Source: Posidonia oceanica
Lineage: Eukaryota; Streptophyta; Magnoliopsida; Alismatales; Posidoniaceae
NCBI GenBank assembly: GCA_037176725.1
Contig: JAZBRS010000054.1
Span: forward strand, 10,310,001 to 10,374,000
Direction: 5' to 3'
DNA: 64,000 bases
Part shown: positions 32,619-60,619 of the stretch, piece by piece
Numbering within the stretch: the first letter of the stretch is position 1
Layout: every line of letters begins with the position of its first letter
Translations under genes and position numbers: made by a program
Notes under the pieces: generated by a model
The model's database searches: none
Seen by the model: only the letters and a program-made list of their open reading frames with translations
Told to the model about the DNA's origin: nothing

Positions 32619-35600
32619 ATTGTGCATCATTACTGTTGTCTATGGATTAAAGAGATAAAAAAAACTCCGTTCATTTCCTTCTCATCATGCCATTACTACA
32701 GTGCCAATCCATTGTCAGCCAATGCCATTACTACAATGCCAAACTGCCAATGCCATTACTCCACACTCACCATATAGCAGTAATCACTAATTCCATTGGC
32801 AGCCAACTCATAAGTCCTGTTATTTTTTTCCATTTTTAATTTTCTTTCTTAGTTATTCAATAGGTTCTATGTCCATTTGAATTTGAACAATAATTTGATT
32901 GGGAACAACATACAATTGATCTGTAAACTTGCTACTGTTCTTGTTAATTTTACTAGGCCATAATATCAATTATACAAATATTGTTACATTCTAACTTGCT
33001 TTTGACATTAGCTTTTTTATTTCGAAGGAAGTCTCAATCGTAAGAATTCTTCAAGAAAACCAGTCCAACAAAAAATAAAACTTTGTCATTCCTCGATTGA
33101 TATATGTCAGCACACTAGTCACCAAACCCCTCTTTGGATGTAGAATAAGAAAAATAAGAATAAGTAGAAAGTGGTATTGGTATTCTAATAATATTGCTAT
33201 TCTGTTTGGAAGTGATTTATTTTTAAAAGTGAATAAGTGTGTATAGGAAGATATTCTGGTTTAAATGAAAAATAGAATAAATATCAGAATAACTGTTGGA
33301 ATAAGTAAAAGACATGTAGATTAATAATAATCAATTTGATTATTAAAATATATATCTAATTTAAAATATGTATGCATCATATTATATATGTATTAATTTT
33401 TAAACAAAAAATAAACACATCATATACATACATGTATCAGAATAACTTAGCGGAATAACTTTATTCCATCCTTTCCGCGGAATAGCTATTATGGAATAAG
33501 TAAATTAGAGTAAGAATGACTATTCCGCTTTTATGCCACTTTTTGACTTACCAAATAGAATTGTAATTCCAACTCTAGCTTTATTTCTAGCTTTATCGAG
33601 GTTCCAAACAAGGGCCAAGAGTTTGGGCTGACTAATTTTGACTAGTCTACTTGAAAACCATGGATAAATCATCAATGCTTGACCACATTACCTCGGGATG
33701 AGGAAGTAAGGAACACAAAGATCAAGAAAAAAATTTGGAAAGATAGAATAACACCTAATTTATCAAAAAAGGAGGTACATCCAAGGTTTGAAAAGAAACT
33801 AACATAATCATGAAGTTTCTGAAATTGATAAATTTCCAAGGACAAGCGATCAAATAGAAAAATAACATGAGTAAACTAAATTTTACATAAACAAGAAAAT
33901 AAAAATCAATGAACAAAGGTTATTTGTGAAGAGGCAATATGAACAATAAGAAGAAGAACAGAATTTTACATGAGAAGGAAGGACTATTGATTTTGCTTTT
34001 CTGTATTCTCTAACAGCCAAATCATATTCACCCTTGCTAATGCTTCCACGTATTGCACTTGGTAAATTAAATAGTGTCCTGAATCTCTGAAGCATTCCTT
34101 GGACAGATCTGATTTTCTCAGCTTGCACCTGTGCCAAGTCATAATAGATCAGAATGAAACCTCACTTAAGTACTTAAATACATAATTAAATATGATGACA
34201 CAAAGAAGAAAGGGGTATAAAAGTTTTTTCCGTTGCAGACTTCATTTTTTTCTTCTTTGCCTTAGCATTTTATTTTTCTTTGGTTCTCTCTGAATTATTT
34301 ATATTCTCATCCATGTTTGGGGTCCTCCTCCTCTGCAACTATTTCTGTAAAATAAATCTTGTAAACTGGAAGCAGAAAGAAGTGGAGATGTGAAAGCAGG
34401 AAGAAAGTTCTACCTGCCTCTCGAATAGTGGCTGAAAAGCACGATTTGCCAAGACATTGATCTTCTGTGTGGCATCATGCAGTTGGGCTGTTCCTGCACC
34501 TTCAGGATCTTCTTCTATCTGCCTCAATTTCGATTCAATGTCTGCAAGAGATCAAATCATTTTTTAAAGTGGATTACCAACCGAATTGATATGCATGCCT
34601 CTAGAAAAGAACAGGGATGTCCTTAATAAGATTATATAGAGAAAGATAGAAACAAGGATGCTACCATGAAACATAAACATGTACAATTGCCTTTAACATA
34701 CCGTCAATAGTTGTTTTGCATGAAACAAAACAATCAAAATTCTCCTTAACTAATTGCTTCTTCTGTTGTGTCCTTCCTTTAAGATCTGTCTTTAATGATA
34801 GAGCACCAGCTTCTAAATCTGCTGCACTTGTATCTTTGTGCACCCGTGATAGAAAAAGTTTTGCATCAAATTTTTCAGAATAATAACCTAGCTTTTCTGC
34901 AAACATAAGAAACACATTCCTGTTAGATTTAATGGAAACAAGGGTCTCCGAACATCCTTACATATGTATAGTACAATATTTAGTAGATGTGACTCAATAA
35001 GATATAAGTGAATGAAGCATTTGTAGGATCGAAAGACTTCTCTAAAGGAGGGTGAATAGAGAAGTTGAGTAAATATAAAACTTATTTGTTGTTTTTAAGT
35101 TTTATAATAATTATAAGTACAAGTATATTGTTAGAGATCATGTATATATGTGTGTAGTATGACTATATCGGTAAACGGATTGTTGGATATTCAGTCAAGT
35201 CTAGAGTATCTAATATACTCTATATATATGTACCTACACATGTTCAATAAGATATACGATCTTTTTCTCCCTACTTTGTCTCAAGTCTCAACATGGTATC
35301 AGAGCAAGGTTAAACCCTAGAAAATCCCTATTCAGCCGCCGACCATCCTTCCCGCCGCCTGCATTCCTCTCCAACGCCGTCAGTCCACTCTGGAGTAATT
35401 TCCAGCGCCGCTAGCCACCTTTCCCACCGCCTGCACTCCTCTCCGGCGCCGTCAGTCCACTCTAGATTGATTTCCGACGCCGCCAGCCATCATCGGACGT
35501 CCCAAGAGTGCAGTTTCACGCCGCCGAGGGTTCTAGCAACCACCTACAGCGCCGACAGGGCCTCCTGCCCTAGGATCCAGAGGCATCCGTAGCCTCAGGC

Positions 35601-38600
35601 CCCTCCAGGGTTTTTCGGCGGCTACTCCAGGCCCTTCCAGCCTAGCTGCCGGCCAAGCCAAGCATCACCGGCGCATGTCAAGCCACCGATGAAGGCTCCC
35701 GTCCGTTCTAGTCTGTTCGTGGGGGCAGTCCGGCCCCTCCCGTGACGTAGTTTGTTGGTTCAGGCCATGTTCTAGGCCTCCAGTTCCCTCTGGCCTCTGT
35801 TGTGTGTTGGTGAGCAGTTCGATCCATATAATTGCTATTTTCAGATCATATATTGGTGTTATTTCTCAGTTTCAATCCAGTATGACCTATCGTGAATCAT
35901 TGGTTAAGCATCTTGTGGCACTTCTGAGAAACTCAATGGCACAAACTATTTTCTTTAGTCCCAAAGCTTCGAAACCTTCATTGTTGCACATAGAAAATTG
36001 AAGCATCTTACACAACCTCCTCCGGACAGTAAAAATGCTGCATATAAAGATTGGTGTGCGGATGATGCAGCTATTGTGACATGACTTAGGAAGAACATCT
36101 CCTGGATTTTCGAGGTCTATGAGCAATTGTTCATCATCCGTCAAGGTGAACGTTCTTTACAGGAACACTTCACTCGTTTACGTGCCTTACTTGATGAGAT
36201 TGAGATGTACCAATCCCTTACCGATGATGTGAGTCAGATGAAAAGGTATCGGGAAGAACTTACAGTATCTATCTATCTCTTCAGTTTAAATTCTGACCTC
36301 AGTTCACAGATTTGCGGACAGATTTTAGGTGCCAACAGTCTTCCCAATCTACAGACGGCTTTCTCCAAGTCATTATGGGTCTCCACAGGGACTTCTACTT
36401 CGACTCCAAAATCATCTGCGATGACTACTACTAGGGGACATGGCCGTGGAGGTTACCACGGCAATGGATGTGGTCGTTCTGATAGTGGTGGACGTCTAAA
36501 ATATACACATTGTGGCAGACTAGGACATCAGGTCGACCGATGTTGGGATCTAATTGGCAGACCACAGACAATGCATGTTACTACAGAGTCTCCACCTGTC
36601 GCTCCAACCAATGATGATCAGACGTTTACTGTTTCTCAGACTGACTATGAGCGGTTCTTACAGCTAAAGATCACTGACTCCGCTGCCACTACTATGCAAG
36701 CAACCTCCTCAGATACTAGTGCTCTCCTTGCATCCAGGGAGTTTTCTTGAATTATTGATTCCGATGCCTCCTCACACATGTCAGGTATAAAAAAATTGTT
36801 TACTAGTTTATCTCAACTTTCTGATATTCGATCAGTGACAATTGCTGATGTCCGATCTTGTCCTGTCTCTGGTGGAGGGGTTGTGCAAGCTTCTTCACAA
36901 CTGTCTCTTGCAAATGTTTTTTTTGTGCCTAATTTTCCTGTTAATTTGCTATCAATTAGTGCCATTACTAAATAATTACGTTGTTCTGTCACTGTTTTCC
37001 CTTTTCATTACACCGTTCAGGATTTGTAAACGGAGAAGAGAATTGATTTAGACCGTGAGTGAGGAAATGATGTGTATCAGCTGGTCTGCGATGATATACC
37101 TCGAAAATTAGCGTCTGTGGCATCTACATCTGAATCTTCCTCCATTTGACACTACCAGTTAGCTCATCCATCTCATCAGAAGTTACAACAGACTTTACCT
37201 TGGTATTCTGTATCTCGTTTTGATTGTGAGTCGTGTCAGTCAGGTAAGCACCATCGTGCTTCCTTTAAACATTTGCATCTTGTATCGAGTCCTACTTTAT
37301 TTGAGTTAGTTCATTGTGATGTCTAGGTCCTGCAGTCAGTGTCTGGTCATAGATATTATATAATTTTTATTGATGATTTTTCGAGAGCGTCTTGAGTTTA
37401 TTTGCTTAAAGATCGTAGTCATATTTATGATGTACTCAAAACCTTTCTTTTTGAAATAAAAAATCAGTTTGATGCTACTCCAAAGTTTTTACATACTGAT
37501 AATGCTCTTGAGTTTGTACAAACAAAAATTGCATCTTTTTGTACTTCGTTAGGCATTATACATCAAACTTTGTACCCTCATTCTTCACAACAAAATAGGG
37601 TCGCAGAGCGTAAGCATAAACATATATTAGATGTTACTCGTACTATTATGTCACATATGTATGTCTCAAAATATCTGTAGTCTGATGCTGTCCTTACCGC
37701 TACATACCTCATCAATAGGATGCCTTCTGATCCTCTAGGGAGTGAGATTCCTATCCGTCGTCTTAAACTTGACACATGTTTGTTTTTTTAACCCCTCGGG
37801 TTTTTTACTGTGTAGCTTTTGTTAAGGATTTATCCCTTGGACTGGGTAAGTTGTCTCTTAGGTCCATAAAATGCATCTTTGTAGAGTATTCTAAAACTCA
37901 GAAAGGTTATCGATGTTTTCATCCACCTATTCAGCGGTATTTTGTCTCGACCGATGTCACCTTTTTTGAGTCTATGCATTATTCTGAGGTGTCTCCCACT
38001 CCAGTTGAGTCTGTTCCCCTTTCATCTGTTATTGAGCGGCGTCAGGATGTCGTATCTCCAGAGATCTCCACTGTGCATACACAAGTCTTGCAGGTATATC
38101 ACCGTCGCTAGAGCACACCAGCACTTCTCATGACTGAACGAGACTCCTCTACAGCTACAAATCCGCCGCTCAGTCCCTAAAGCATTCATATTATCCTTCG
38201 AAAAAGTATTCGCTCTTCCACTGCTCATCCCATCTCCAATTTTGTATCTTATGCTTCTCTTCACCCTAGATTCCGTAGTTTTACCTTGTCTCTTTCTTCA
38301 GAGTCCATTCCCAGGAATCATCAAGAGGCATTGTCCCTTCCTTACTGGAAGGCAACAATGGATGAGGAGATTACTGCATTAACCACTCGTGGTACTTGGA
38401 AGTTAGTGACCCGCATTGTTGGAACTACAGTAGTCACCTGTAAATGAGTATACACTATCAAGTATAAGGCAAACGGCAGCATTGATAGATACAAGACACG
38501 ATTGGTTGCTCGAGGCTTCACTCAGACATATGGCATTGACTATGCAGAGATTTTTTCTCTTGTTGCCCGTCTTAATTCTATTAGGATTATTTTGTCTCTA

Positions 38601-41600
38601 GCTATCAACCACTCTTGGGAGTTATGCCAGTTGGATGTCAAAAATGCCTTCTTATATGAGGATCTAACCGAGTTTGTGTATATGGAGCAACCTCCAAGTT
38701 ATGTTGCTCAGGAGGAGGATCGTGTGTGCAGACTGAAGAAGGCGATTTATGGCCTCAAACAGAGTCCCCAGGCATGGTTTGAAAAGTTCAGTCAGGTGGT
38801 CCTAGCTGGTGGATTCCAGAGGTGTGCTGTTGATCATTCAGTTTTCTACAGGAAGACTACTAGTGACTGTGTTATTCTCGCAATATATGTGGATGATATA
38901 TTGGTGACAGGCAGTAATGTGAAGGGCATTACAGAGAACAAACAACAACTTCACACTCATTTTGTCACGAAGGATATAGGAAAGCCATGTTATTTCCTTG
39001 GGATTGAGTTCGTCTATGTAAATGGAAGAATGACATTATCACAGAGGAAGTATGTCCTAGATCTCCTACAAGAAACAGGCCTTCTGGGGTGCAAACCAAA
39101 GAACACTCCTATTGAACAAACATCGGTGTTCTGAGATACCAACTCAAACTTGTTAAAGGATCCTAGTCAGTATAGACGATTGATCGGGAAGCTCGTCTAT
39201 CTGACAGTGACTCGACCTGATATTTCATATACAGTCAGTCTTTTGAGCCAATTTATGCATGAGCCTAGGAAAGTACACTGGACTGGAGCCCTTCGTGTCC
39301 TGTTTTATGTTAAAGGTGCTCCAGGAAAAGATCTAGTCTGCAGAAGGAATGGTCACATAAGGATCATGGCTTATTCAGACTCAAGATATGCAAGAGATTG
39401 TAAGGACAGAAAATCCACGTCTGGCTTCTGTACTTCTGTAGGAGGTAATCTTGTCACCTGGCAAAGTAAAAAGCAAACTGTAGTGTCGAGGTCCAGTGCA
39501 GAGGCAGAGTATAGGACCATAGCACAGACAGCTTGTGAGATGATATGGATCAAGTCACTCTTGAAGCAGCTTGGTTTCGATGTTGAGCTTCCCATGTCCA
39601 TGTGGTGTGATAACCAAGCAGTTATATTCATTGCAAACAATCTCACCTTCTATGAGCGCACGAAACACAATGAGGTTAACTATCACTAGTGAGAGATCTG
39701 GTAATGAATGGGGTTATTTCGACACCTGACACTCAGTCTTCAGAGCAGTTGGCAGATATCTTCACCAAAGGCTTAAGTGTTGGTGTTTTTCATTTTTATG
39801 TATCAAATTGGACATGATTGATATGTATGCTCCAGTTTGAAGGGGAGTGTTAGAGATAATGTATATATGTGTGTAATACGAATATATGGATAAATGAGTT
39901 GTTGGATATCAGTCAAGTCTAAGGTATACTCTAATATATATGTACTCTATATATATCTAATATACTCTATATATATATGTACCTACACATGTTCAATAAG
40001 ATATACGATCTTATTCTCCCTATTCTCTGTCTCAACATATATCAATGATGATTAAAACAACGAAGTAAAACAAACATAGAAGGGGATGAGAGACAATGAA
40101 AACACTATAAAAATACTATAGATTTATAATGGTTCGGTCAATTCCAGCCTAGTGCAATCCTTGAGAACCCCTCAAGAGTTTCCTTAATCTTAATAAACTT
40201 ACTTGTATGACGATCCCCTCGCCTATTCTGCAAAAACTGCAGTACTTTCTCACAACCAGAGAAGCTCTAGACCTTTTGAGACTTTTACATATTTCAACTT
40301 GAACACCACCAAGCTATAAGATCTCCCAACAATACAATAGAATGTAATAGATGTGGATATTAGGCTCACTTTCCTTTTCTCAATGGGACTTAGCTTGGAA
40401 TGCTCTCTTTTGATGTGGAATGGAGTTTTGGAGCTTGAATAATAACAACTAGGCTTGTAATATGCTTAGAGTGGAATTGGTGCCTTTGGAAGGGAGGAAT
40501 AGGGTCCTATTTATAGGAAAATCCTAAGGAATATTCGTGTCTAACGACTAATTCCCCCCCCCAACGTTCACAAACAGCTAGTAGTTCGACGTACCGAAAT
40601 TCTTCGATCGCTCATTTTGCCGTTAACGTTCACAAAAATCGACTAGTTCGGTATACCGAAATGTTTCGGTGTGCCGAAGGTGCTCTTGATTGTGAACCTA
40701 TATTCCAGATTTCGGTATACCGAAGTTTTTTGGTATGTTGATTCTATTATCTGTTATGAACTCTGATTTCCCTAGAGTTCGGTACACCGAAATTATTCCG
40801 TCTGCCGAAATCAACCCTTGAACCAATCTTTAAGGATTTTTCTAAGATTCCCTCTTAGGTTCATGGATATTCCTATTTTTTTAGGATTTTAACATGTTTG
40901 GGAGATCTTTACACATCCTAGATATTACAAAAAGAGAAATGAAAAATTACATCAATGATTTTACAATAAGCTCAAACGCATTCTTTTGGTCTTGATTTTC
41001 TTTGATTTCTCTTTGATTTCTTCCAAATGTCTCCACGTTTCTTCCTTCATGGTATGTATCTTCCTTATAAGTCATTTCTTGGAGTTTGTTCACTTTATAT
41101 TCTAAGCATTTCTCACATAGTAATATTAGTCCGAAAAACAATATACATGACTTTGTTATCATCAAAATAAAATATTCAGGTGTATATTTCCAACAATCTC
41201 TTCATTTTTTATAATGACAAAAACTTAAAATTTTAATCTATATACTCCCCCTACTAATAAGCATGGGTTTGATAAAATTTTATCAATAATTATCTTCCCC
41301 TTGTTATTGAAGTATATAAGCAACAATTTTCAGCTTTAAAATTCTATTTTGAGTAAGTACATTTTTTTTTAAACCATTGCTCCCCTTAATTATCATAATT
41401 TTAGTTAAATATGCACAATATAATATCTTCTCCCTTTTTTTTGTCATGAGCAAAAAGATATAAGTATTTAAATCAAAATGGGGATGTATATTTCCAAAAA
41501 ATGTTTATTTAGCATATGTATACAAGATATAGTACTCCTTGATATTTTCACAAGATAATTGAATGTGATACTTAAGTTAAAAAATCAACAATAAAAAACC

Positions 41601-44600
41601 AGAACTTTCGACATACCGAACAGAAACGGTAGACCGAACCAATAATTATCTTCCCTTTGTTATTGAAGTATATAAGTAACAATTTTCAACTTTAAAATTC
41701 TATTTTGAGTAAGTACTTTTTTTTTAAAACTATTGCTCCCCTTAATTATCATAATTTTAGTTAAATATGCACAATATAATATCTTCTCCCTTTTTTTTGT
41801 CATGAGCAAAAAGATATAAGTATTTAAATCAAAATGGGGATGTATATTTCCAAAAAATGTTTATTTAGCATATGTATACAAGATATAGTATTCCTTGATA
41901 TTTTCACAAGATAATTGAATGTGATATTTAAGTTAAAAAATCAGAACTTTCGACATACCGAACAGAAACGGTAGACCGAACCAAAGCATTTTTATTTGTT
42001 ACATTTATGCTCACAAATGTCAGAAACAATTATCATATATTTGTATAATCATTCATAACCATTCTCAATCATATAATTTCATAGATAATCATAAAATTCA
42101 TACATAATCATCACAAAGTCTTATATATAAGCATAACATTCATTTAAACATAATGTTTACATAAACATACAAACATGACTCATAATCACAAGACTATAGA
42201 GGTGGAGGTGGTGGATATCCGTGTAGATATTTGATTATCTCATAATGGTAGGAATCCATATTTTCTCCAAGCTGTGTGATTTGATCTGAGTGGTATTTCA
42301 ATTGTTGGTCTGAATGAGCAATATATGAGTCAAAACAAGTGGAGAGGGAGTTTAGATTTTCTGTGAATTCATTTCTCTATTCATACGACTGTTTATGTAA
42401 CTCTTCTTGTCGTAAATGAATATCGGAGATTTGATTTCTCAATTCTTCAATTACTCCCTTATTGACTTGATCCTCGTCTTCTTCTTCTGAACTTTCTTCA
42501 TCCTTCTCTTGAGTCCCAGAGTTGATGCCTTAGAGGTCAGAACTTTCTTCATCCTTCATACTTTTTGCTCTTTCTAAAGCTTGTTCCATCTTATCAATGG
42601 CGACACTATCTAAGTGTCTGGACTTAACAGTGATTGAGGGATCATTAGCTAATGGGACATTATAGTGCTCAAAAAAGTAAATTAGTGAAGGTCCATAGAA
42701 TAGTTTGGTCTTTACATGTTCCATACAATGGAATATGACTCTAGACCAGTTTACTAGAATTTTCTTGATAATGGCATAGACAGTTTTACTGGATAGTTCG
42801 CTAAGTTCATCATTGTGGTATTTCTTTTGTATGATATTAGCCGCTACAATATAGACTATGATCCTAGATTGTTTTGTTAATTGGTTTAATTGATTTGGCT
42901 TAAATGAACTTCTTTTGTTGGAGGAAATGATTTTGTTTATTTCTTGATATGACCAACCTTGTTCCTTAAAGGTTAATGTGATATCTAACCCTATGGATGG
43001 GATTTTCAATTGTCCAATTAAGATTTCATCAAATGGTAGTTCTATACCAGATAGAAATGATTCACAAATGTATTGGGAAATTCCTAAATTGACATAAAAT
43101 TCGGAGACTAAGTGAGGATAGTACTTTGTGTCACCAATTGAAGATAGATAAGGAACAAGCATTTGTTTTTGAAAGAAAGATCCAATGGCTCTAAGATCAT
43201 GGAAGACTACCTTTCTTACAGTGAGTACTTCACGATTTGCGAATCTCTCGTTGTGAGCTTTCATGACTGCATCGTCTATAAAATAGAAGTATCTGATGAA
43301 TACATAATTTATTCATAATTCATACATATTTTATTCCTCATATTTATTTGATTATTGTATATAAATAATGCTACTTGGGGTGTTTTTAGTTAATTTTGCA
43401 AGAACCTTAACTATTACAAGCAAATGCAAATAAAAAACGAAAGAGAAGATCAAAAGATCAATTATGTTGCAAACATGGGAAGAAATCTCAATCCAACTAG
43501 ACTCCAATTAAAGATTCAATTTGAGCACATAGCAAATTCAAATTCAAATTCAAATGGATTCTAGATATGCACAGTATTCTCAACAAGCAATCAAAATTAG
43601 TGGTGGTTGGTGGCTCTTACTATATATGGAGAGAATTCCTAAAATCTAGGGATGTCTTTTAAATCGAAGATATTATTCATATTTGTGATTTAAATTTTTA
43701 AAAAAATGTAATCCTTATTCATGTCTATAAATATAGGGATTCTCTATGTATTTCATCATCTTCTACTTTGTATACTTCTTCTCCTGGACCGCTTCTCCAA
43801 CTATGGAGTTGAGTGCTTGAAGTTGCTTGTATCGGGTTTGAATGATAACATTATTAATTTTATTTTATTATATTTCCTTCTTTTTATTTTTGTTTCCCTT
43901 TTTCAATCATGTGCGAACTTTTTTTTTTAGAATTAGATGAAGCTATGGTAATTTCATGATGATGTAATTAGTTTTGCTCTTTTCTCTCTTGTGCTTCATG
44001 TCATGATCAAATATGCTAGACTAGCACAACATTGATTTCCAATTATTTCGATAAACTTTGATAGGCTAATATTAAGTACATCTTTTTAGCCTATACTTAG
44101 GAAAGAGTAAATTAGAGATCGTGTGTATTGTCGTAGTTATATTATTTTATCATTTAATTAAATCATGCTTTTATTTTTATATTCATGTACTTGATAATCT
44201 ATCATGTGTTCCATATAGACTATGCTTGTTAGAGTAGAATTCTTTAATTTGATTTTTGAGATTGAAAAGTAAGAGAAAGTGAACTAGTTGATTATCATAT
44301 TAATTGCATAGTGAATTCATGATCCTAGACTTCATTATATAATTTTAAGTATCAAAATCATCACGTTTTCTTTTATTTCACTAAATTCCAATTCCATCTT
44401 TATATCTTCCATCATAATTTGACAATTAGAATTAAAATCTAGAATTCACTATTCTCTGTAGGATCGACCCGTACTTGCATACGTACTACATAATACGTCA
44501 TGCACTTACGGTTATTTAAAATTCACATCAGTATCTATCACCGTGGGCACGCTTGTCAGAGGAGGAGGAGGTGTTCGGAGCTTGCTTCCTCCTTGACCTC

Positions 44601-47600
44601 GTGGCATGCATCTTTTTGGGCGGCATTGTTGGAGAATGAGGTGGAGAATGAGGAAAGGACGGGATTTGAAGAGGAAGTGAAAATCTTAGGGTTTGAGGAG
44701 GAATGGAGACGATACAGGATAGAAGGTTGAAGGAGAAATGTGTTTTTCATTGAAACATAGGGCTTAAAACAGGTTTATTTGTCCTGATGTAACAAAATCG
44801 GTATACCGAAAACGAACGGTATGCCGTTTTGCTCGAAACTAAGACACACAACTAAGAGTATGTTCAGTCGACCGGACAAAATCGGTAGGCCAAAGATACC
44901 TCCTGTCCGAAAGTGCACTCGGTAGGCTGAAGAATTTCGGCAGACCAAATTATCTATGGACAGAAATCTGACAAAGGAGTTTGATAGACTGAAGAATTTC
45001 GATTTGCAGAACACACATATATATTCAATAATTTTAAACTATATCATTCATTGTACAAATACCTAAATTTCTTCTAATTTTAATGAATTATTGTTCATCC
45101 AAGGGTTTTATGAATGTCTGTTAATTGATCTTTTGTAGAAATAAATTCTAATTTTATATCATTTTTAAATACATGATCCCTTAGAAAGTGATGTCATACT
45201 TCAATGTATTTGGTCCTAGAGTAATGTACTGGGTTTTAAGACAAGTTTATTGCACTTGTGTTATCACATAGGACATATGTTGTGTTGAATGATAAATCAA
45301 AATCTTTTATAGTTTGCCTCATCCACAGTATTTGTGTACAACAACATCCAACTGCAATATACTCAGCCTCAGTGGTTGATAGGGCCACACTATTTTGTTT
45401 CTTACTAAACCATGAAACTAATAAGAGTCCCAAGAATTTACATGTACCACTTGTACTCTTTCTATCCGTTTTGCATCCGACAAAATCAACATCACTGTAG
45501 GCTACAAGATCTAGATTTGAATTTCTAAGGAAAAATAAACCAAAGTCCTTAAATCCTTGAAGATATCTAAAAATTCTTTTAACGACTAAATGTGATTCCT
45601 TAGGAAAGACTTAATATCCAACATAAACATACACTAAACATTATATCAAGCTTACTAACTGTTAAATATAGTAAAGATCCAATCATTCATCTGTATCGTT
45701 TTTTATCAACATTTACTTCATCTCCATCCTTATTTAGTTTGGTAGTTGTACTCACTGGTGTTTTAGCAATTTTTGAATTGTCCATATCAAATCTCTTTAA
45801 CAATTCATTTGTGTATTTTTCTTGGCAAATAAATATTCCTTCTTTCATTTGTTTTATTTAAAATCCAAGAAAGAACGTTAATTCCCCCATCATACTCATT
45901 TTAAATTCTTTTTGCATAGTTCTTACGAATTCTTTACACAGATTTTCATTTGTAGATCCAAATATAATATCATTCACATAAATTTGGACTAATAAAATAT
46001 CTTTGTCAACTTTCTTAATGAATAATATGATATCCACCAATCCAATAATAAATCCATTTTCAACTAAGAATTTCTTCAATTTATCATACCAAACTCTAAG
46101 TACTTGTTTTAGTCCATACAAGACTTTGTTTAGTTTAAACACATGATTGGGATGAATTTCATCTTCAAATCCAGGAGGTTGCCTAACATAAACTTTTTCT
46201 TCAATGACTCCATTTAAGAAAGCATTTTTTACATCCATTTGAAACAATTTGAAATTCATATAACTAGCATAAGTCAATAGCATCCTTATTGACTCTAGTC
46301 GGGCAATTGGAACATAAGTCTCATCAAAATCTATTCCTTCTTCTTGACTATAACCTTGTGCTACTAATATAGCTTTATTTCTAACCACTATTCCTGATTC
46401 ATCCAATTTATTTCTAAAGATCCATTTTATTCCTATAACTGGGTGATCTAAAGGTTTTGGAATTAATTTCCAAACATTATTTATTTTAAATTGATTTAGT
46501 TCTTCTTGCATGGCAAACATCCAAAACTCATCACTACATGCTTCATCCACATTTTTAGGCTCAATAGAGAACATGAAAGCATATGTAACACAGCCATGAT
46601 CTAAGTTTGAACGTGTAAGGATTCCCTTGGAAACTTCACCAATAATGAGTTCCTTGAGGTGTCCAGACATTTATTGCCATTCTTTAAAATTGTTTTTAAG
46701 CTCTATCTTATTTTGCGTATTTTCTTCATTATTTGAGTTGTTTAAAGTATTTTCAATAATGTCAGATTCATCTTCAACATTAATTGTTTTAGTTATGTTT
46801 CCATCAAAGTCTACATGTATAGATTCTTCTATAGTTTGAGTTTTTTTATTAAAGATTTTATATGCCTTACTCCTAGAAGAATAACCAATAAGGATTCCTT
46901 CATCAAATTTAGAGTCAAATTTGTTCAAAACATCCTTGATTTTTAAGATAAAACATTTACACCTAAAAACTTTAAGATATGAAATGCGAGGAATTCTTCC
47001 AAATCAAAGTTCAAAGGGAGTTTTGTTTAAGATAGGTCAAATAAACCCGTTTTAAGCCCTATGTTTCAAATGAAAAATGCATTTCTCATTCAATCTTCTC
47101 TCCATTGCCGATGACTCCCTCTCCTGTGCCGTCTCCATTCCTCCTCAAACCCTAAGCCCCTGTTTAGAACCTGGAGCCAGAATTTGAATTACAATTCCAT
47201 TTGGCAAGTCAAAAAATAGAATAAAAGCGAAATAATAATTCTTATTCTGATTTACTTATTCTAGAATAGCTATTCCCGCTAGAATAGCTATTCCACAGGA
47301 ATGATGGAATAAAATTATTCCGCTAAGTTATTCTGATACATATATGTATACGGTGTATTTATTTTTTGTTTAAAAATTAATACATATATAATATGATGTA
47401 TGCATATTTTAAATTAGATATATATCTTAGTAATCAAGTTGATTATTATTAATCTATATGTTTTCCACTTATTCCAACATTTATTCTGATACTTATTCCA
47501 CTTTTCATCTAAATCAGAATATCTCCCTATATACACTTATTCACCTTTAAAAGAAAATCACTACCAAATAGAATAGCAATACTATCAGAATACCAATACC

Positions 47601-50600
47601 ACTTTCCACTTATTCTTACTTTTTTTATTCTACATCCAAAGAGAGGCTAACATTTTCACTTCCTCCTCTTCAAATCCCGTCCTTTCCTCATACTTCACCT
47701 CATTTCCACCTCATTCTCCAAAAATGCTGCCCAAAAAGATGCATGCCACGAGGCCAAAAAGGAAGCAAACTCTAGACACCTCCGACAACGACAACGACGA
47801 GCGCGCCCACGATGATAGATACTTCCATTTCATAGACGATGTAGCCATGAAAGCTCACAAATAGAGATTCGCAAATCGTGAAGTACTCACTGGAAGTAAG
47901 GTAGTCTTCCATGATCTTAGAGCCATTGAATCTTTCTTTTAAAAACAAATGCTTGTTCCTTATTTATCTCCAATTAGTGACACAAAGTACTATCCTCACT
48001 TAGTCTTCGAATTTTATGCCAATTTAGGAATTTCCCAATACATTTGTGAATTATTTCTATTAAGTATAGAACAACCCTTTAATGAAATCCTAATTGGACA
48101 ATTGTTGAAAATCCCATCCACAGGACTAGATATCACATTAACCTTTAAGGAACTAGGTTGGTCATATCAAGAAATAAACAAAACCATTTCCTCCAACAAA
48201 AGAAGTTCATTTAAGCCAAATCAATTAAACCAATTAACAAAACAATCTAGGATCATAGTCTATATTGTAGCGGCCAATATCATACAAAAGAAAGACCACA
48301 ATGATGAGCTTAGCGAACTATCCTGTAAAGCTGTCTATGCCATTACCAAGAAAATTCCAATAAACTGGTTTAGAATCATGATCCATTGTATGGAACATAT
48401 AAAGACCAAACTATTCTATGGACCTTCACTAACTTACCTTTTTTAACACTATAATGTCCCATTAGCTAATGAACCCACACTCACTGTTAAGTCCAAACAC
48501 TTAGACAATGTCGCCATTGATAAGATGGAACAAACTTTGGAAAGAGCAAAAAGTCTGAAAAACATCAATACCTCCAAGACATCAACTTTTGGGGCTCAAG
48601 AGAAAGATGAAGAAAGTTCAGAAGAAGAAGACGATGATCAAGTCAATAAGAGAGCAATTGAAGAATTGAGAAATCAAATCTCCGATATTTATTTACAACA
48701 ACAAGAGTTACATAAATAGTCATATGAATGGAGAAATGAATTCACAGAAAATCTAAACTCCCTCTCCACTCGTTTTGACTCATATATTACTCATTAAGAC
48801 CAACAAATGAAATACCACTCAAATCAAATCACACAGTTTGGAGAAAAGATGGATTCCTACCATTCTGAGATAATGAAATATCTACACGGATATCCACCAC
48901 CTCCACCTCCATAGTCTTGTGATTATGAGTCATGTTTGTATGTTTATGTAAACATTATGTTTAAATGAATGTTATGCTTATATACAAGACTTTGTGATGA
49001 TTATGTATGAATTTTATGATTATCTATGAAATTATATGATTGAGAATGGTTATGAATGATTATACAAATATATGATAATTATTTCAGACATTTGTGGGCC
49101 TAAATGTAACAAATAAAAATGTTCTGTTCGATATGCCGAAAGTTCTAGCTTTTATTGTTGATTTTTTAACTTAAGTATCACATTCAATTATCTTGTGAAA
49201 ATATCAAGGAATACTATATCTTGTATACATATGCTAAATAAACATTTTTTGGAAATATACATCCCCATTTTGATTTAAACACTTATATCTTTTTGCTCAT
49301 GACAAAAAAAAAGGAGAAGATATTATATTGTGCATATTTGACTAAAATTATGATAATTAAGGGGAGCAATAGTTTGTTTTTTTTTTAAATGTACTTACTC
49401 AAAATAGAATTTTAAAGTGGAAAATTGTTGCTTATATACTTCAATAACAAGGGGAAGATAATCATTGATAAAAAAAATTCAAACCCATGCTTATTGGTAG
49501 GGGGAGTATATAGATTAAATCTTTAAATTTTTGTCATCGTTAAAAAAGAGGAGATTGTTCGAAATATACACCTGAATATTTTATTTTGATGATAACAAAA
49601 TCATGTATATTATTTTTCAGACTAATATTACTATGTGAGAAATGCTTAGAGAATAAATTGAAGAAACTCCAAGAAATGACTCACAAAGAAGATACATATG
49701 AAGGAAGAAACGTGGAGACATCCGAAAGAACTCAAAGAGAAATTAAAGAAAATAAAGACCAAAAGAATACGTGTGAGTTTATTGTAAAATCATTGATGTA
49801 ATTTTTCATTTCTCTTCTTGTAATATCTAGGATGTGTAAAGATCTCCCAAACATGTCAAAATCCTAGAAAAAATAGGAATACTCGTGAACCCAAGAGAGA
49901 ACCTTAGAAAAATCTTTCAGTAGACCAAATAATTTCGGTGTATCGAAATCTGAAAAAATCAGAATTCACAATAGATAACAGAATCGACATACCGAAAAAC
50001 TTCGGTATACCGAAATCTAGAATATAGATTCACAACCAAGAACACCTTCAGCACACTAAAACATTTCGGTATACCGAACTGGTCGATTTTTGTGAACGTT
50101 AACAGCAAAACGGGCGATCGAAGAATTTCGGTATGCCGAACTACTAATTGTTTGTGAACGTTGGGGGGAAAACTAGCCGTTAGACACGAATATTCTTTGT
50201 GATTTTCCTATAAATAGGACCCCATTCCTCCCTTTCAAAGGCACCAATTCCACTCTATGCATATTAAGCCTAGTTGTTGTTATTCAAGCTCCAAAACTCC
50301 ATTCCACATCAAAAGAGAGCATTCCAAGCTAAGTCCCATTGAGAAAAGGAAAGTAAGCCTAATATCCACATCCATTACACTCTAAGCATCATAGCTTAGT
50401 GGTGTTCAAGTTGAAATCTGTAAAAGCTTCAAGAGGTCTAGGACTTCTCCGGTTGTGAGAAGATATTGCGGTTTTTGCGAGATTGGCGAGAGATCGTCAT
50501 ACAAGTAAGTTTATTAACATTAAAGAAACTCTCAAGGGATTCTCGAGGAGTGGACTAGAGCGGGATTGGCCGAACCACTATAAATCTATAGTATTTTCAT

Positions 50601-53600
50601 TGTCTTTCATCCCCTTCTTTACTTGTTTTACTTAGTTGTTTTAATCATCATTGATATACTTGTGTTTATAATTATTAAAGAACTTAAAAACAACAAATAA
50701 GTTTTATATTTACTCAACTTCTCTGTTCAGCCTCCTCTAGAGAAGCCTCTCGATCCTACAGCATTTACCATACTTTTTTTGAAAAAAGAATAAGGAGATT
50801 TTAATATATATGAAAAATCCAAGCAAAAATCACAGCCCCTGAGAATGAACTAAGGGCAAAAAAAAAGTTACAGCCTCTCAAAAATAAGTCCTTTCAGAGC
50901 ACTAAAACTTGCTCCATTTCACTATCAATGCCTGGCAGGCCTCAAAAAGAACCGAAGAGTAACCTGGCTCATTGTTAAACACCATGCTAGCATTTACTGT
51001 ACTAGTGACTAAAATGAGCATTCAATAATAGTGTTTTTTAGTGATCAACAAGGTCTACTTCTTTATTCATTAATAACCACATTTTACAAATATCCCATTA
51101 CAGTGTTTTATTACGAAGATGAAGTTGATGCAATTGCTGTTTTAACTCATCCATAAAACTCTAACCGACCTGGTACTTAAATTAATATATTATCAGTTCT
51201 TTTTTAATTGGAAATTCCCAAATGGATTTGCATCCTTGCCTCCTAAATAGTGAAGGCTTAGATGTCAGTTCGTGGACTCAATCAATAAACAGAAGGGGGA
51301 AATAGGATAAAATTCTCAAAACCATTACCTTATTGTTTGATTATTTCTCCTCAAGCATGAAAATCATACACTCTCAAACGCATATCTATATATAAAAATC
51401 ACATATACACTCCCTGTTTCAATTTTCATAGTCTATACCAGCTAACTTCGGTTTATCCTTGACCATAACTTGCACTATCAGTTATTCAGATGTCACAAAA
51501 AATGTTAATTGCCCATTTAGGTTACCGAGATCAAAGGATGATCGGAACAATAATTAGCTCTATTTCTATCTCCTCAAAGAAACTGAAAAGGTTGAAGCTC
51601 TTTTTGGAAACATTGGATCTAATTCCTGATTTCCCTGCTATTAGCGAATAATAAGCACATCCATCAAGTCTCATCCACCTGCACAGCATGTGCACCTTTG
51701 GCTAGTATATAACAGTGACACTTCTGATGCTACCATTTTTTACCAACATTGCCCTTGAACAATTTAGCTTACTCTTCTTTCCTTCTTTTTTTTAGTGGTG
51801 ATTTAACTTATTCCTAGTAATGGTATCTCCTCTCCATACCCAGAATAAAATGGTGCAGCAACTGCTTAAAGAGAACCAGAAGGAGACAATGAGAACACTA
51901 AAATTATCTAAACCAGTAGAAACAAACGATAATACATGAATTTCTCTTGCACCAGTTTTTTCTTTGAAATCCCTGTCATATAATTGATACATGTCTATTA
52001 AGCAAGTAACAAACCAGCAGCAGCTATGTTAATTGTTGCGATAATATAATTGTTTATATATAGAAACTAGGATGTGCATAGCACGTGCTTGACTGCTAAT
52101 TTCCTAAAAAGTAATAAAATGGGATCAAAATAAGTATACCTCGAGTTTTTTGGTCCAGAGGTTCTTTGCTTGTTTTAGATCCAGCAGTAGTAGGGGAACT
52201 TTCAGAAGCCTCAGTAATTAGCATCAAGGACCTACTGTCTATTATCCTACAATAATGCACGTATAAACATAGGTTGAGACTCACAAGACGGAAACATATA
52301 TTGTTTATGAGAAATATCAGAAATATCATATGGTACAACAAAAATAAAAGTTTCAGCATATCGAAGGAGAAACCCAGAAGGCTGAAACACACTGTTAATT
52401 AGCTAATTATATAGCATCCCAATTTACATTTCCTTCATACTGAAGGCATGTCTTTATTCATCAACATATGTATCGGATTACTTTTACAACAATATATATG
52501 TGATCAAATCTGTCTTGTTCCTAGTCAATTAGATGATATAAAACAAGAAATATAGTTGTTAAGGTGACGCCTAGAGACGACAAATCACCCGTGCCTAGCA
52601 AGGTGTTGGGTGCCTGAAAATGTTACTAATAGGCATCACCTTCTTCTTGCCTTGGTCATCTAGGTATCGCCTTGTCCCTCATCTTGTGCGCCTAGAATCA
52701 ACTTGCACACCTAGGCAATATTCATTCTAGCATAGGCAATATTTACTGATAGTTAAAAAAAAAAATTATAGTTGACATTATAGCATTAATTGACTTTATA
52801 CAATAGTATACAATTATAACTTCATATTTTAATTTACAAGTTGGAGTATTTCCTTTTTGTTTAAAACCTTACAAACTTAAATTGCAAATAAATATTTGCA
52901 TTTTATGTAATTAAAAGATCTGATTTTGGTGCCTAGGTCATCAAGACAACGCCTAAATGCCACGGCACTCTAGTCATTGCCTGGGCACCTTAATAACCTT
53001 GACAATAAGTCAAAACATAACTTGAAAAGCATATTGACAATATTTTTTAGAATCTTAAGTTCACTTATTGCCAAAAATTTTAATGTCAAAGAATCCCTCT
53101 AATAATAACACAAGTATACACTATTCGGAGTGTATGAAAATAAACCTTTTATATTCATTTGAAAGAAGTAGGATACATGCATACAGGAATGGGAGCATAT
53201 GTTAGTATAACTTTTATATTCATTCAAAATAAGTAGGATACTGTCCTCAGTTTCATCCATACATGTCATCACATCTTATATGACCCACATTCAATAAACA
53301 ATGTACGTTTGCCAGGTCAAGAGACTCTAGTTTTCCTAGGTGTCCTAAAGTGTTCATTCAAGTAGTGAGAAGGATTTATGTTATACATAATAGAAGCTTT
53401 AAGTTCTTGAGTTGTTTGTATCCACAAGCAGTATATTTTTTATATCATAGTATTACATCTAAAGGACTGGAAATGTTTACCTGAGTAACGGATGTGATTG
53501 CTGTACTGTCTTTCATACATATGATTAAAGCAGTTAGAAATCAGATGACATGCCTTTGCCTTTCAGTATTCTTGTAACATTTCTTTTGGTTTAACATTGG

Positions 53601-56179: not shown

Positions 56180-56941
56180 GTGTAACTAGACTTGTAAATC
56201 GTACCGATTTGGTCAGAAAAGGACGTGACCCAGACGAACTTGGACTGGACCGAGTCAAATTTAATAGACCCCTGGTTCGACACGGTCCATGGCCCGCCAC
56301 TAGACCAAGTCGTGGGCCTGACGAGCCGGGTCAGGCAGGGTCGGTCTAATTTTTAAAAAAAAATTTAAATTTTATTTATTATTAAATATTTAAATATTTG
56401 ATATATACATAAAAAAATTAAAAACATACATAAGATATTCAACCTTTTACATTTTTACATTAATATAAATTATCCATAAGTAGAGCTCGTTGAAATTGAC
56501 GTCGTATCCTCGTCTTCTGATTTGTCGTTTAAACTCAGCCCTTGAAGATGATCAACCGCATCGTACCAGTCCTTCAAGCATACAGAGACTTCTATAGACT
56601 TTTCTGATAATTTACATCTTTTATCACTTAAAAATCTTTTACCTACAGAAAATGCAAACTCCGACGCCATCGTAGACGCCGGAATCGTTAGTAAATCTTT
56701 AGCCATTTTAGAAACAATAGGAAACCTAATTGCGGAACTAGACCACCACTTTAATATATCTAAATTATCCATTTCTAGTTCACTAAAAGCAAACTCACAT
56801 TCAAAATAATTTTAGAAGTCATTATTTGTGGTTCATTTTATGTATTTTTCTTTTTTTATTCAATCTACTCTAAAATGAACTACTACTACTACTAGTAACA
56901 TATGTTCCTACAAAACTAGATGTGTAAATACTAGAACTACC
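56180..56941 (-). pseudogene. hAT transposase C-terminal part
   Basis: The 100-aa frame at 56772-56470 reads DNLDILKWWSSSAIRFPIVS, then IPASTMASEFAFSVGKRFLS, DKRCKLSEKSIEVSVCLKDW. This is the hAT C-terminal dimerisation domain of the plant ricesleeper-like group. Degenerate upstream sequence to 56941 belongs to the same gene. A hAT-type terminus (ACTTGTAAATCGTACCG) lies near 56188. The N-terminal part lies at 62881-63545 beyond an inserted copia element; about 200 or more residues between the two parts are missing. Confidence 0.85.
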
Positions 56942-58256
56942 TGTTAGGATCGAGAGGCTACTCTAGAGGGGGGTAAATAGAGTATTTAAGTTTAAAAGGA
57001 ATTTTAACCAAATTTAACAAATCAATAAGTAATATTCAAAATGAAAGATATAAGTTGAGCAGTTTGAATAATTACTACAACAATCACAGAAGGGGAAGAG
57101 AGGCAATGATATAAGACACAGTATGTATAGTGGTTCAGCCAACCCGGCCTAGTCCACTCCCAGATCCCCTCAGATCCTCTCTAGAGTTCCCTTAATCTTT
57201 ATCAAATAAACAACACTTACTTGATGAAGAAAAACCTCATCTGCAAAAACCCACGGAACTCTTCTCACAGCCTAAGAAGTATGTTCCTTGTTTACAATAA
57301 GTTAAGTAGTATCTCTTTTGATCTCTCGATGGAATTTGCTCAAGATATCACCTCTTTGGATGTTTTAGGAGTATTCTCACTGGTTTGGAGTTTGTAGCTT
57401 AGAAAATGAGTATACACAATCTTGTCAGTGGTGGTATATCTTGGTGGGTCTAAAGGGGTCCTATTTATAGATATATCATGACCCAAGGTTGTGTCTAACG
57501 ACTAGCTCAACGTTCACAAACGGCTAGTATAATTGGTATTCCGAAATAAATCGGTCAACCGAAAATCTCCAACTTTTGACTAAATCGGTATTCCGTTAAG
57601 AAACGGTGTTCCGATATTAATCTGAGCTGTAGATATATACTACCGGTGTTCCAGTAGATATCGGAGTTATGGAACCTATTTCAGGTATCGGTATTCCGTT
57701 ATAAATCGATTTTCCGATTTTGCTAAACTGTTACATTTAAATAATATTTCTACTGTACCTTTTACAGAAAACGGTATACCGGTGGAAGTCGATTTTCCGT
57801 TTTCACTCAACGGTTATACTTAAATGATATTTCTACTGTTTAACCCTATAACCCGTAGAACGGTATACCGGTGAGAATCGGTATTCCGTTTCTAACCTGA
57901 CTTCTAAATTTTGAAGTTTTTCTAAATGTATTCATCAGGTTTAGGTATGAATGTTTTCCTAAATGTTTTTGGGATGTTCTTGGAGATCTTTTACATTCTT
58001 TCTTAGAGTACAATGATAAAGAAAAATACATACAAATAATTACAACATTAATACATTTTGTCTTGATCTTTCTTTTTGTCTTTATGTAGTATCTGATCTC
58101 TTCTGCGTTCCATGCTATACTTGATATTCTTCAATGGTTGACTTTTCTCAGATAATCCACTTATCTTAAAATCAACTGAATAGTATAATCTCAAGTAATA
58201 TCATTAATTCCATTTGTTATCATCAAAATTAAATATATCATAGATATTTTTCAACA
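56942..58256 (-). repeat. 3' LTR of the truncated Sirevirus-like element
   Basis: On the minus strand it starts TGTTGAAAAATATC at 58256 and ends at 56942. The terminal part (plus-strand view TGTTAGGATCGAGAGGC) and the CTCTAGAGGGGGGTAAATAG block nearby match the ends of the palindromic element in intron 3. The U3/R part carries many half-palindromes such as GGTATTCCG and CGGTATACCGG (57538-57890). Confidence 0.85.
57530..57895. repeat. Palindrome cluster in the LTR (CGGTATxCCG type)
   Basis: Repeated words GGTATTCCGAAA, TCGGTATTCCGTT, CGGTGTTCCGATA, CGGTATACCGGTG and TCGGTATTCCGTT are spaced about 20-60 bp apart. They are imperfect palindromes on the same theme as those in the intron 3 element. 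Confidence 0.75.
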
Positions 58257-58717
58257 ATCTCCCCCTTTTTGACGATAACAAAAACTATACATAAACATAT
58301 TCATTTTTATCCTTTGACAGTAACAATATTGATAATGTAATAATCATGTAAATAATTTTCAATTTTGTATAAATGCTCCCCCTTACTACAAGCCTAAATA
58401 AGCATATATATGCTCCCCCTTACTATAGGCTATACATTAAATATGTGATATTAATTTCTCCATCTTTTTGTCATAATACAAAAAGAATCCCGATAATAAC
58501 CATAATATATTTATAATTAAGATTTTTCAATAATTTTCTAAAATCAAAAGAGATATATCAAGATGCTACTAAGATTTAAATCTTGATACCTTTGTCAATT
58601 ATGACTGTCTTTTCAAAATACTTACTAAGATTCTTTCATAAAAAAAACATTCACATAGGTTAAGCTCATAATAGTAAACATGTCCACATACGAAAAGTCA
58701 TAATGTTAATATTTTTT

Positions 58718-59848
58718 TTAACATATCTCAGAAGAAATATATAGAAATAATAATAATAAGCTCCAACTACTGGTGGATGGAGGAGGCAGATGTCCATGAA
58801 GATATCTCATTATTTCGGAATGCTGATCATCCATCTTATTTTTCATTCTCATTTGCCAGTCATCTACATTGCTTTGCCAAATATTGCTTTGGAGTTTCAT
58901 CTCTTCTATTTCTTTTCTCAATTTTACTAATTCTTCTTTATTTTCCTCTTCTTCTTCTTCAGAATTCTCATCTTGAGGTACTTGAGAGCTGGAGGAATAA
59001 GGACGAGCACTCTTGAGAGTTTTCGCTCTTTCCAATGCTTTTTCCATTCTTACTATGGCGACATCATCTATAGGATGAGCCCTAATGGGAAGGTTTGGCT
59101 CATTTTCTAAAGATATACCAAAGTGGATAAATACATAAGTGAGAAGGGGCCCATAAAAAAGTTTTGTTTTGATATGTGTCATGTGATGAATTATGACACG
59201 AGCCAAATTAACAGGAATCTTTTTAATTATGGCATACACAGCTTTACAGGTCATGCTACTCAATTCATCGAAGTGTCCTTTCTTTTGAATAACATTTGCC
59301 ATAAGAATATATACTATAATCCTAGATGTCCTGGATAACTGATTTATTTTATTTGGGATAAAGGTACTCTTTTTGTTTTGAGAAATGGTTTTATTTATTT
59401 CTAGATAACTAATGTCTAATTCCTCTACGGATAATGTGATGTCTATACCTGAGAAAGGAATTTTTAGTAACTGACCTATTAAGACTTCATCAAATGTCAT
59501 TTCTGTACCTAAAAGATATGAGTTGTATGTATCAGCTAATATCAAGAGGTTGGCATAAAACTGGGATACTAGGTGTGGATAATACTTATTGTCGCCCATA
59601 GACGCTAAAAATGGAGTTAAAGATTGTGCATAAAAAAGAGAGCAAATTTCACCCAAAGAGTGGAAGTTTGCTTTTCTGCCGGTGAGGACTTCTCGGTTTG
59701 CAAATCTCTCTCGGTGGACTTTCATAGCTTCCTCATCGATGAAGTGGAGGAACTTGTTTTTAAGAGTGTGGTCGTCATCGGAGGAGTCGCTGCCAACGGA
59801 CGGAGCCTTCCTCTTGGGCTTCTGTGCTTGGCTTTTCTTTGGCGCCAT
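58718..59848 (-). CDS. Intact post-pol ORF of Sirevirus-like element (376 aa; 415 aa from an upstream ATG)
   Basis: The ORF is open from 59965, but the two related copies start at MPPKK/MLPKK, which aligns with the internal MAPKKSQAQKPKRKAPS at 59848, so that start is preferred. The order is a basic nuclear-signal-like N-terminus, acidic serines, then the core with FLHFIDEEAMKVHRERFANR, YYPHLVSQFYANLL, FDEVLIGQLLKIPFSGIDIT, SRIIVYILMANVIQKKGHFD and TKLFYGPLLTYVFIHFGISL. An acidic coiled-coil-like stretch (EEEEENKEELVKLRKEIEEM) follows, then RYLHGHLPPP. The tail SWSLLLLFLYISSEIC is hydrophobic and absent from the other copies. It belongs to the plant envelope-like / putative plant transposon protein family. 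Its function is unknown, and an envelope role is unproven: no signal peptide is evident at the preferred start. Confidence 0.75.
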   Translation of the reverse strand: MAPKKSQAQKPKRKAPSVGSDSSDDDHTLKNKFLHFIDEEAMKVHRERFANREVLTGRKANFHSLGEICSLFYAQSLTPFLASMGDNKYYPHLVSQFYANLLILADTYNSYLLGTEMTFDEVLIGQLLKIPFSGIDITLSVEELDISYLEINKTISQNKKSTFIPNKINQLSRTSRIIVYILMANVIQKKGHFDELSSMTCKAVYAIIKKIPVNLARVIIHHMTHIKTKLFYGPLLTYVFIHFGISLENEPNLPIRAHPIDDVAIVRMEKALERAKTLKSARPYSSSSQVPQDENSEEEEEENKEELVKLRKEIEEMKLQSNIWQSNVDDWQMRMKNKMDDQHSEIMRYLHGHLPPPSTSSWSLLLLFLYISSEIC

Positions 59849-60109
59849 TAGAAAATGGGGAGGAGTAGGAGGAAAAGCCGACTGTAAAGGAGTCTTGAGA
59901 GGTGACGATGAACAGTAGAGAGACGTCGGAGGCTGGAGAAGCGATGGAGGTCGGAGACTCGCCAAAGATCGGAGAAGAATCGCCGGAGAACCAAGGAGCG
60001 CGCGAGGGTTTTGGTGGCTTAAGGCTTAGGGTGGAAATGTCGGCCAAAAACGGAAGATACACTATTTATAAAAAAAGTTTGAAATCTAGGGTTTACAACT
60101 AAAAAAATG

Positions 60110-60600
60110 ATTAAAACGGTATACCGATATTGGACGATATTATGATTTAATATATATAAAATACCAATTCATTCTTCCAGAGCAAAATGATCTTCCGAAT
60201 CAAGGAATTTCGGAACACCGATTATAATCGGTTTATCGACGAAAATTCATATAATTTTTGTTTTAAATACAAATCGGCACACCGGTCGAAATTGAACTTC
60301 CGAATCAGGGAATTTTGGAAAACCGGTGAATATCGGTTCATCAAAAAATCTGCAGGTTTTTCGTTTTTCTGCATAATCGGTACACTGGACAAAAATGAAC
60401 TTCCGAATCAAGTATTTTCGGAAAATTGGTCAAAAATGATCTTCTGAATCAGGGAATTTCGGAAAATCGGTCAAAAATGATCTTCCGAATCAGGAAATTT
60501 CGGAAAACCGGTCAAAAACGGTGCTTCAAAAATATTGTCAGATTTATACAGAAATCGGAAAACCGATGAATTTCGGTATACCGATTTTGATTTCTAAGAT
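60110..60600. repeat. Palindrome and direct-repeat cluster between RNase H and the post-pol ORF
   Basis: Many variants of AATTTCGGAACACCG, CTTCCGAATCAGG, TCGGAAAACCGGTCAAAAA and one perfect TCGGTATACCGA (60573-60584) lie in about 490 bp. The unit CTTCCGAATCAGGAATTTCGG recurs at least five times (about 60190-60510). A matching but shorter cluster lies at 44798-45005 in the intron 3 element. Confidence 0.8.
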
Positions 60601-60619
60601 GATAATTTTTATAAAATGT

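What the first reader, a model, noticed from the sequence alone, without database searches (positions are those of the whole stretch)
35022..50760. An LTR retrotransposon built as a head-to-head palindrome yet integrated as one unit
Seen: the outer ends are inverted copies of the same LTR end (TGTAGGATCGA...), not direct LTRs. Both flanks carry GCATT. Each arm holds LTR, polypurine tract, UTR and post-pol ORF, and a single pol remnant lies between them. Known: normal integration joins two direct LTRs and makes a 5-bp duplication. Inference: a palindromic cDNA with the same LTR end at both termini, made by strand switching during reverse transcription, was used by integrase. The switch point near 47036 has short homology (AAATAAAC). 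This would be a natural fossil of an aberrant reverse-transcription product accepted by plant integrase.
Basis: partly seen in the sequence, partly recalled or inferred. Interest (0 to 1): 0.88.

Follow-up and report, generated by a model that had tools for sequence, protein, structure and literature searches.

The report
Head-to-head retrotransposon inserted as unit
A plant Ty1/copia retrotransposon sits in an intron of a SEC5-like gene as a head-to-head palindrome whose two outer ends are the same (U5) LTR end, flanked by a 5-base repeat, which is best read as a mis-made DNA copy that the element's integrase nevertheless inserted.

Summary
At 35022-50760 two inverted arms of a Ty1/copia element (3' LTR, polypurine tract, post-pol ORF) flank one pol remnant; both outer termini are the U5 end and both flanks read GCATT. 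It lies in one intron of a SEC5-like gene whose exons stay in order across it, which speaks against a large genomic inversion. The junction, 47038|47039, was found only here among 40 scored family copies. It sits on homology between pol and UTR (TTTTGTTT and GGGTC blocks), not on AAATAAAC as first written. The arms are sisters on the ORF tree (94/84), but the LTR tree does not group them. A second U5-U5 palindrome of the family exists elsewhere (L010; 1246 bp; flanks ATATG/AAATG). Best reading: one integration event using two U5 ends, on a palindromic cDNA made by strand switching during minus-strand synthesis. Not excluded: two truncated cDNAs integrated together and then joined by host repair, or two independent insertions fused by deletion with a chance 5-base match (about 0.0015). 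A joined-flank search of this genome showed no empty site.

The parts
35017..35021 (.). left copy of the 5-bp flank repeat GCATT
50761..50765 (.). right copy of the 5-bp flank repeat GCATT
35022..35128 (-). outer (U5) end of the left-arm LTR, up to the nested copia
   Evidence: 92% to 50654-50760 inverted
35129..40037 (.). nested copia element in the left LTR, TSD TATAT (35124-35128, 40038-40042)
   Evidence: LTR-LTR K2P 0.127 +/- 0.030 over 164 sites
40043..41195 (-). rest of the left-arm LTR; inner edge TGTTGG
41196..41209 (-). polypurine tract, left arm (one T in it)
42530..43294 (-). post-pol ORF, left arm, cut by insert 43295-44529; PF20167 at E 2.9e-11, 1 bit under the curated cut-off
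44537..44797 (-). left-arm stretch homologous to the start of the right arm
45236..47003 (-). pol remnant in broken frames: retroviral SH3-like domain, reverse transcriptase (RVT_2), and a frame that looks like RNase H (no Pfam match)
47021..47038 (.). homology at the switch (window TTTTGTTTAAGATAGGTC); breakpoint 47038|47039
47039..47155 (+). start of the right arm (UTR downstream of pol)
47156..47647 (.). MITE-like insert in the right arm, TSD TAA; paralogue at 33127-33580
47648..48719 (+). post-pol ORF, right arm, in broken frames; PF20167 at E 9.6e-11 (47943-48446), under the curated cut-off
49542..49555 (+). polypurine tract, right arm (ends in T)
49556..50760 (+). right-arm LTR, ends at U5 (CCTACA); no PBS beyond it
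34897..52139 (-). host intron of the SEC5-like gene that holds the element (gt at 52139, ag at 34897; exons to 52140 on the right and from 34896 on the left)

Best explanation
One integration event inserted a head-to-head palindromic DNA of a Ty1/copia element. Shown: two inverted 3' halves, both outer ends U5, 5-bp flank match, one junction, host gene colinear. Inferred: a minus-strand cDNA growing from U5 through the LTR, post-pol ORF and pol left its RNA upstream of the RT region, annealed by the TTTTGTTT..GGGTC homology to a minus-strand cDNA (its own or a sister's) in the UTR, and copied that strand back to its tRNA-defined 5' end. The product has two U5 ends; integrase used both and made the 5-bp duplication. 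The inserted DNA lacks PBS, gag and the 5' part of pol.
For: Structure and flanks. Of 40 scored copies (974 candidates) only the window spans the junction; the other 39 match the pol side only, none past 47055. Homology ending at the breakpoint: exact blocks of 8 and 5 bases; as good a score in 0.0003 of random position pairs, 0.0003 with the acceptor fixed, 0.00095 with the donor fixed (20,000 draws each, one pol copy against one UTR copy). Peptides of exons on both sides join to 255 aa that align end to end with a Tasmannia SEC5A (74%, one 1-aa gap). Arms sister on the ORF tree: 94/84 (17 rows), 99/96 (12 rows), 93/85 (16 rows) (bootstrap/SH-aLRT). Nested copia LTR divergence 0.127 +/- 0.030 is about the arm LTR divergence 0.114 +/- 0.011, as expected if the arms were near identical at insertion and rates are alike. 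Family TSD: ATAAA/ATAAA in one canonical pair, GACAC/GATAC in another. Second U5-U5 palindrome L010. Purified retroviral integrases join pairs of U5-type ends in vitro, Rev-A with 5-bp duplication (PMC3790719, passages).
Against: Five matching bases can be chance (0.0015). The LTR tree does not group the two arms and they share no unique site there (forcing them together is not rejected, AU p 0.5), while six pairs taken as LTRs of one element by position group at 90-99. One of three canonical pairs checked lacks a matching TSD (GCAGG/GCGGC). L010's flanks match at 4 of 5 and its arms do not group either (AU p 0.466). No empty site. ORF trees that put either arm with L067 instead are not rejected at 0.05 (p 0.056 and 0.051). 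No palindromic cDNA has been seen; a snap-back hairpin alone gives one U5 end and needs a further step to give two.
Confidence: 0.65

Rival explanations
1. Two separate, incompletely copied cDNAs, each with a finished U5 end, were taken up by one intasome and joined to the target together; their loose inner ends were then joined by host microhomology-mediated repair.
For: Concerted joining of separate U5-type end DNAs is what the in vitro assay measures (PMC3790719, passages). The GGGTC block at the junction fits end joining. Explains flank repeat and U5-U5 ends without an odd reverse-transcription step.
Against: The homology reaches further upstream (TTTTGTTT) than a 5-base microhomology needs. 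The nearly abutting arms of L010 look more like a fold-back than two chance truncations at the same place.
Confidence: 0.2
2. Two independent insertions in opposite orientation in the same intron, fused by a deletion between pol of one and UTR of the other.
For: A relative lies close by at about 57076-62814, so such elements can cluster here. Microhomology is usual at deletion ends (general knowledge). The LTR tree does not group the arms.
Against: Needs a chance 5-bp flank match (0.0015), two copies in one intron of a family with 253 U5 termini at up to 1 mismatch in 2.96 Gb (decayed copies not counted), and closest kinship of the two arms on the ORF tree.
Confidence: 0.12
3. A later genomic inversion or gene conversion inside an ordinary element.
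For: Inverted repeats are prone to rearrangement (general knowledge).
Against: An ordinary element has a U3 end at its other outer edge; conversion would have to stop exactly at the border of LTR and flank. Host exons are colinear.
Confidence: 0.02
4. Assembly error or chimeric read.
For: Fold-back palindromes are a known artefact class (general knowledge).
Against: The arms differ by K2P 0.075 to 0.151 by segment, carry different nested inserts, and a 300-bp duplication is in the left arm only.
Confidence: 0.01

Closest known systems
Template-switching complex LTR retrotransposons (Sabot and Schulman 2007, PMC1950507, main text read)
   Same: One insertion with flanking 5-bp TSD, built from two cDNA parts joined during reverse transcription
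   Different: There the parts stand in direct order with a third, internal LTR; here the parts are head to head, there is no internal LTR and both outer ends are U5
Ordinary Ty1/copia insertion
   Same: RVT_2 pol, PPT, TG..CA LTR, 5-bp flank repeat; PBS in other copies of the family
   Different: No U3 outer end, no 5' half, inverted arms
Circular MLV DNA with an inverted segment (Shoemaker 1980; only its title seen, as a reference in PMC12789967; the autointegration reading is recalled)
   Same: Retroviral DNA with inverted parts
   Different: Circular and cloned as unintegrated DNA, not a flank-repeat insertion with two U5 ends

Membership tests
Ty1/copia LTR retrotransposon | RVT_2 reverse transcriptase | tested here: met
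   E 8.9e-60
Ty1/copia LTR retrotransposon | integrase before RT in pol | tested here: inconclusive
   a retroviral SH3-like domain (E 1.9e-20) lies upstream of RT; no integrase core is present in the remnant, and the relative's frame 61960-62814 gave no integrase-core hit either
Ty1/copia LTR retrotransposon | LTR TG..CA, PPT, PBS | tested here: met
   LTR and PPT in the window; PBS only in other genomic copies
Single concerted integration | flush 5-bp direct flank repeat | tested here: met
   GCATT both sides; chance 0.0015
Single concerted integration | empty site without the element | tested here: inconclusive
   joined-flank search found the two flanks and two weak partial matches (4 of 4 candidates); no related species could be searched
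Template-switching complex (direct, 3 LTRs) | direct order with an internal LTR | tested here: not met
   arms inverted, no internal LTR

The most novel reading that the evidence does not exclude
Strand-switched palindromic cDNAs with two U5 ends are a recurrent by-product of this plant copia family, and its integrase joins U5+U5 pairs in the cell often enough to have left at least two independent fossils (this window and L010).
Probability: 0.5. Interest if true: 0.7.

Novelty: new variant of a known kind. Interest (0 to 1): 0.58.

Why it matters
If true, it shows from natural sequence that a plant Ty1/copia integrase accepts two U5 ends in vivo, and that minus-strand cDNA can switch onto minus-strand DNA. 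Such insertions would escape programs that look for direct LTRs (general knowledge). They would also be a simple natural source of long inverted repeats, which can give hairpin RNA if transcribed (inference).

Tried and rejected
AAATAAAC as switch homology: rejected, it is UTR sequence and pol copies differ there. Assembly fold-back: rejected by arm divergence and arm-specific inserts. DNA transposon with long TIRs: rejected by RVT_2, PPT and LTR structure. Further copies of the junction: none among 40 scored of 974 candidates. Further U5-U5 pairs: a pattern search gave 253 U5 termini at up to 1 mismatch, of which 100 were listed; reading the list by eye I saw no minus-then-plus pair within 20 kb. 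This is no fair rate: the window's own left end has more than 1 mismatch to the pattern, and L010's pair was not among the listed rows. Of the 40 scored U5 hits (760 candidates) one such pair, L010. A loose local alignment of pol against the 3' half gave a meaningless long alignment and was ignored. Rows dropped before trees: LTR matches under about 480 bases; ORF matches under 500 bases, and L069 and L070 with no match; only the best ORF piece of each copy; the left arm enters the LTR tree with its inner piece only (40043-41198); 3 rows that repeat a locus were dropped from 28 before the LTR tests. Papers: nine searches; their listings showed no report of a U5-U5 palindromic insertion. Read beyond the listing: PMC1950507 main text, passages of PMC3790719 and PMC12789967. 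This library lacks most subscription journals.

Full report
Observation. The window lies at G000:C53:10310001-10374000 of a 2.96-Gb genome; its SEC5-like gene is of plant type. Self-comparison shows inverted arms from 35022 to 44797 and from 47021 to 50760, 87-92% alike in the main blocks and 74-79% in two short gappy ones. Both outer ends are the same LTR end and both are flanked by GCATT. In many other copies the LTR starts at or near the equivalent of 49556 and ends at the equivalent of 50760, and where it is a 5' LTR a PBS-like ATTGGTATCAGAGC with small changes follows. So the shared outer end is U5, each arm is a 3' half, and the U3 outer end and PBS are missing.

Host. The element sits between exons of a SEC5-like gene on the minus strand. 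Peptides from exons at 54440-54414, 54002-53853, 52245-52144, 34897-34703, 34542-34414 and 34122-33970, joined in this order, align end to end with a Tasmannia SEC5A (255 aa, 74%, one 1-aa gap). A longer join of 687 aa gave 566 proteins; the 120 listed carry PF15469, and those with an organism name are plants. Of 10 left-side frames scanned, 5 hit Pfam Sec5 at E 0.01 or better, in ascending profile order, and 5 do not; the 2 right-side frames scanned gave no Sec5 hit, so the right side rests on the protein alignment. The intron is 34897-52139, about 1.5 kb without the element and one GCATT.

Junction. A 276-base query over the junction matched whole only in the window; the 39 other scored copies (of 974 candidates) match the pol side only. 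In the 24 such loci that were cut out, pol reads GAGTTTTGTTTAAGATGGGTC then TAAGTAAAAC, with small changes. UTR copies read TTTTGTTTCATCGGGTC then AAATAAACC, with small changes, in 9 of 13 loci examined; 4 gave no usable match (L066, L068, L069, L070). The break is 47038|47039. Homology ending there scores as high in 0.0003 of random position pairs (0.00095 if only the acceptor is random). Looser similarity also continues past the break.

Kinship and age. ORF tree with the closest copies: arms sister at 94/84 (17 rows); other sets gave 99/96 (12 rows) and 93/85 (16 rows), bootstrap/SH-aLRT. The arms share 5 to 7 sites with no other row. Tying the right arm to L046 or L057 was rejected in the 12-row set (p 0.021, 0.041); tying either arm to L067 is not rejected at 0.05 (p 0.056 and 0.051). 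By plain distance the left arm is not the nearest row to the right arm: L068, L067 and L066 and three others are a little nearer. Against: on the LTR tree the arms do not group, nor do the L010 arms, whereas six pairs taken as LTRs of one element by position group at 90-99 (L007/L013, L011/L046, L014/L050, L015/L018, L016/L059, and the two neighbouring LTR pieces of L019); forcing the arms together is not rejected (p 0.5, L010 0.466). K2P of arms: ORF 0.075, UTR 0.076, LTR 0.114, outer 107 bases 0.091, a short gappy piece 0.151. The nested copia in the left LTR has LTR divergence 0.127 +/- 0.030 over 164 sites, so the host insertion should be at least about that old if rates are alike, which leaves little room for arm divergence before insertion.

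Second case. L010 (C56:55519593-55522792) holds a 1246-bp palindrome of LTR halves, 88.6% alike, arms meeting with almost no spacer upstream of the TATA-like TATAAATAGG, both outer ends U5, flanks ATATG and AAATG. Its centre was found whole nowhere else among 40 scored of 47 candidates. The 4-of-5 flank match is suggestive only.

Mechanism. The window plus strand read left to right is the minus-strand cDNA in order of synthesis: U5, LTR, PPT, post-pol ORF, pol. A switch onto minus-strand DNA in the UTR then runs back to the 5' end of that strand, which is U5. Both ends are then proper integrase substrates. The order is shown by sequence; the switch itself, its partner (own or sister strand) and the timing are inferred. 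The right end carries no copied PBS, so the tRNA had gone or the tail was trimmed (inference). Joint integration of two truncated cDNAs with later end joining gives the same scar and is kept as the main rival.

Prior work. PMC1950507 (main text) describes TSD-flanked direct complexes from template switching, not inverted ones. PMC3790719 (passages) uses DNAs that mimic U5 ends in concerted integration. PMC12789967 (passages) states that RSV integrase is stricter about the U5 end than the U3 end. No report of a U5-U5 palindromic insertion appeared in the listings.

Noticed in passing
57076-62814: A related, more distant copia element on the minus strand with a long open post-pol frame (435 aa, PF20167, E 2.1e-16), upstream of the SEC5-like gene
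   Followed up: partly
L010 (C56:55519593-55522792), 1503-2748: Second U5-U5 palindrome; by eye one arm has a 47-bp tandem duplication at the centre
   Followed up: partly
33127-33580 and 47156-47647: Two copies (85%, inverted to each other) of a MITE-like element with TAA TSD at the second, one of them in the palindrome
   Followed up: partly
41284-41583 and 41640-41939: 300-bp duplication (97%) in the left arm only
   Followed up: no
8885-10017: Long stretch of diverged tandem repeats
   Followed up: no
56470-56811: hAT dimerisation region (PF05699, E 1.4e-20); the frame at 63241-63768, which looked hAT-like to me, gave no Pfam match
   Followed up: partly
23498-26442 and 36876-39860: A second copia element (65-68%) resembling the one nested in the left LTR
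   Followed up: no
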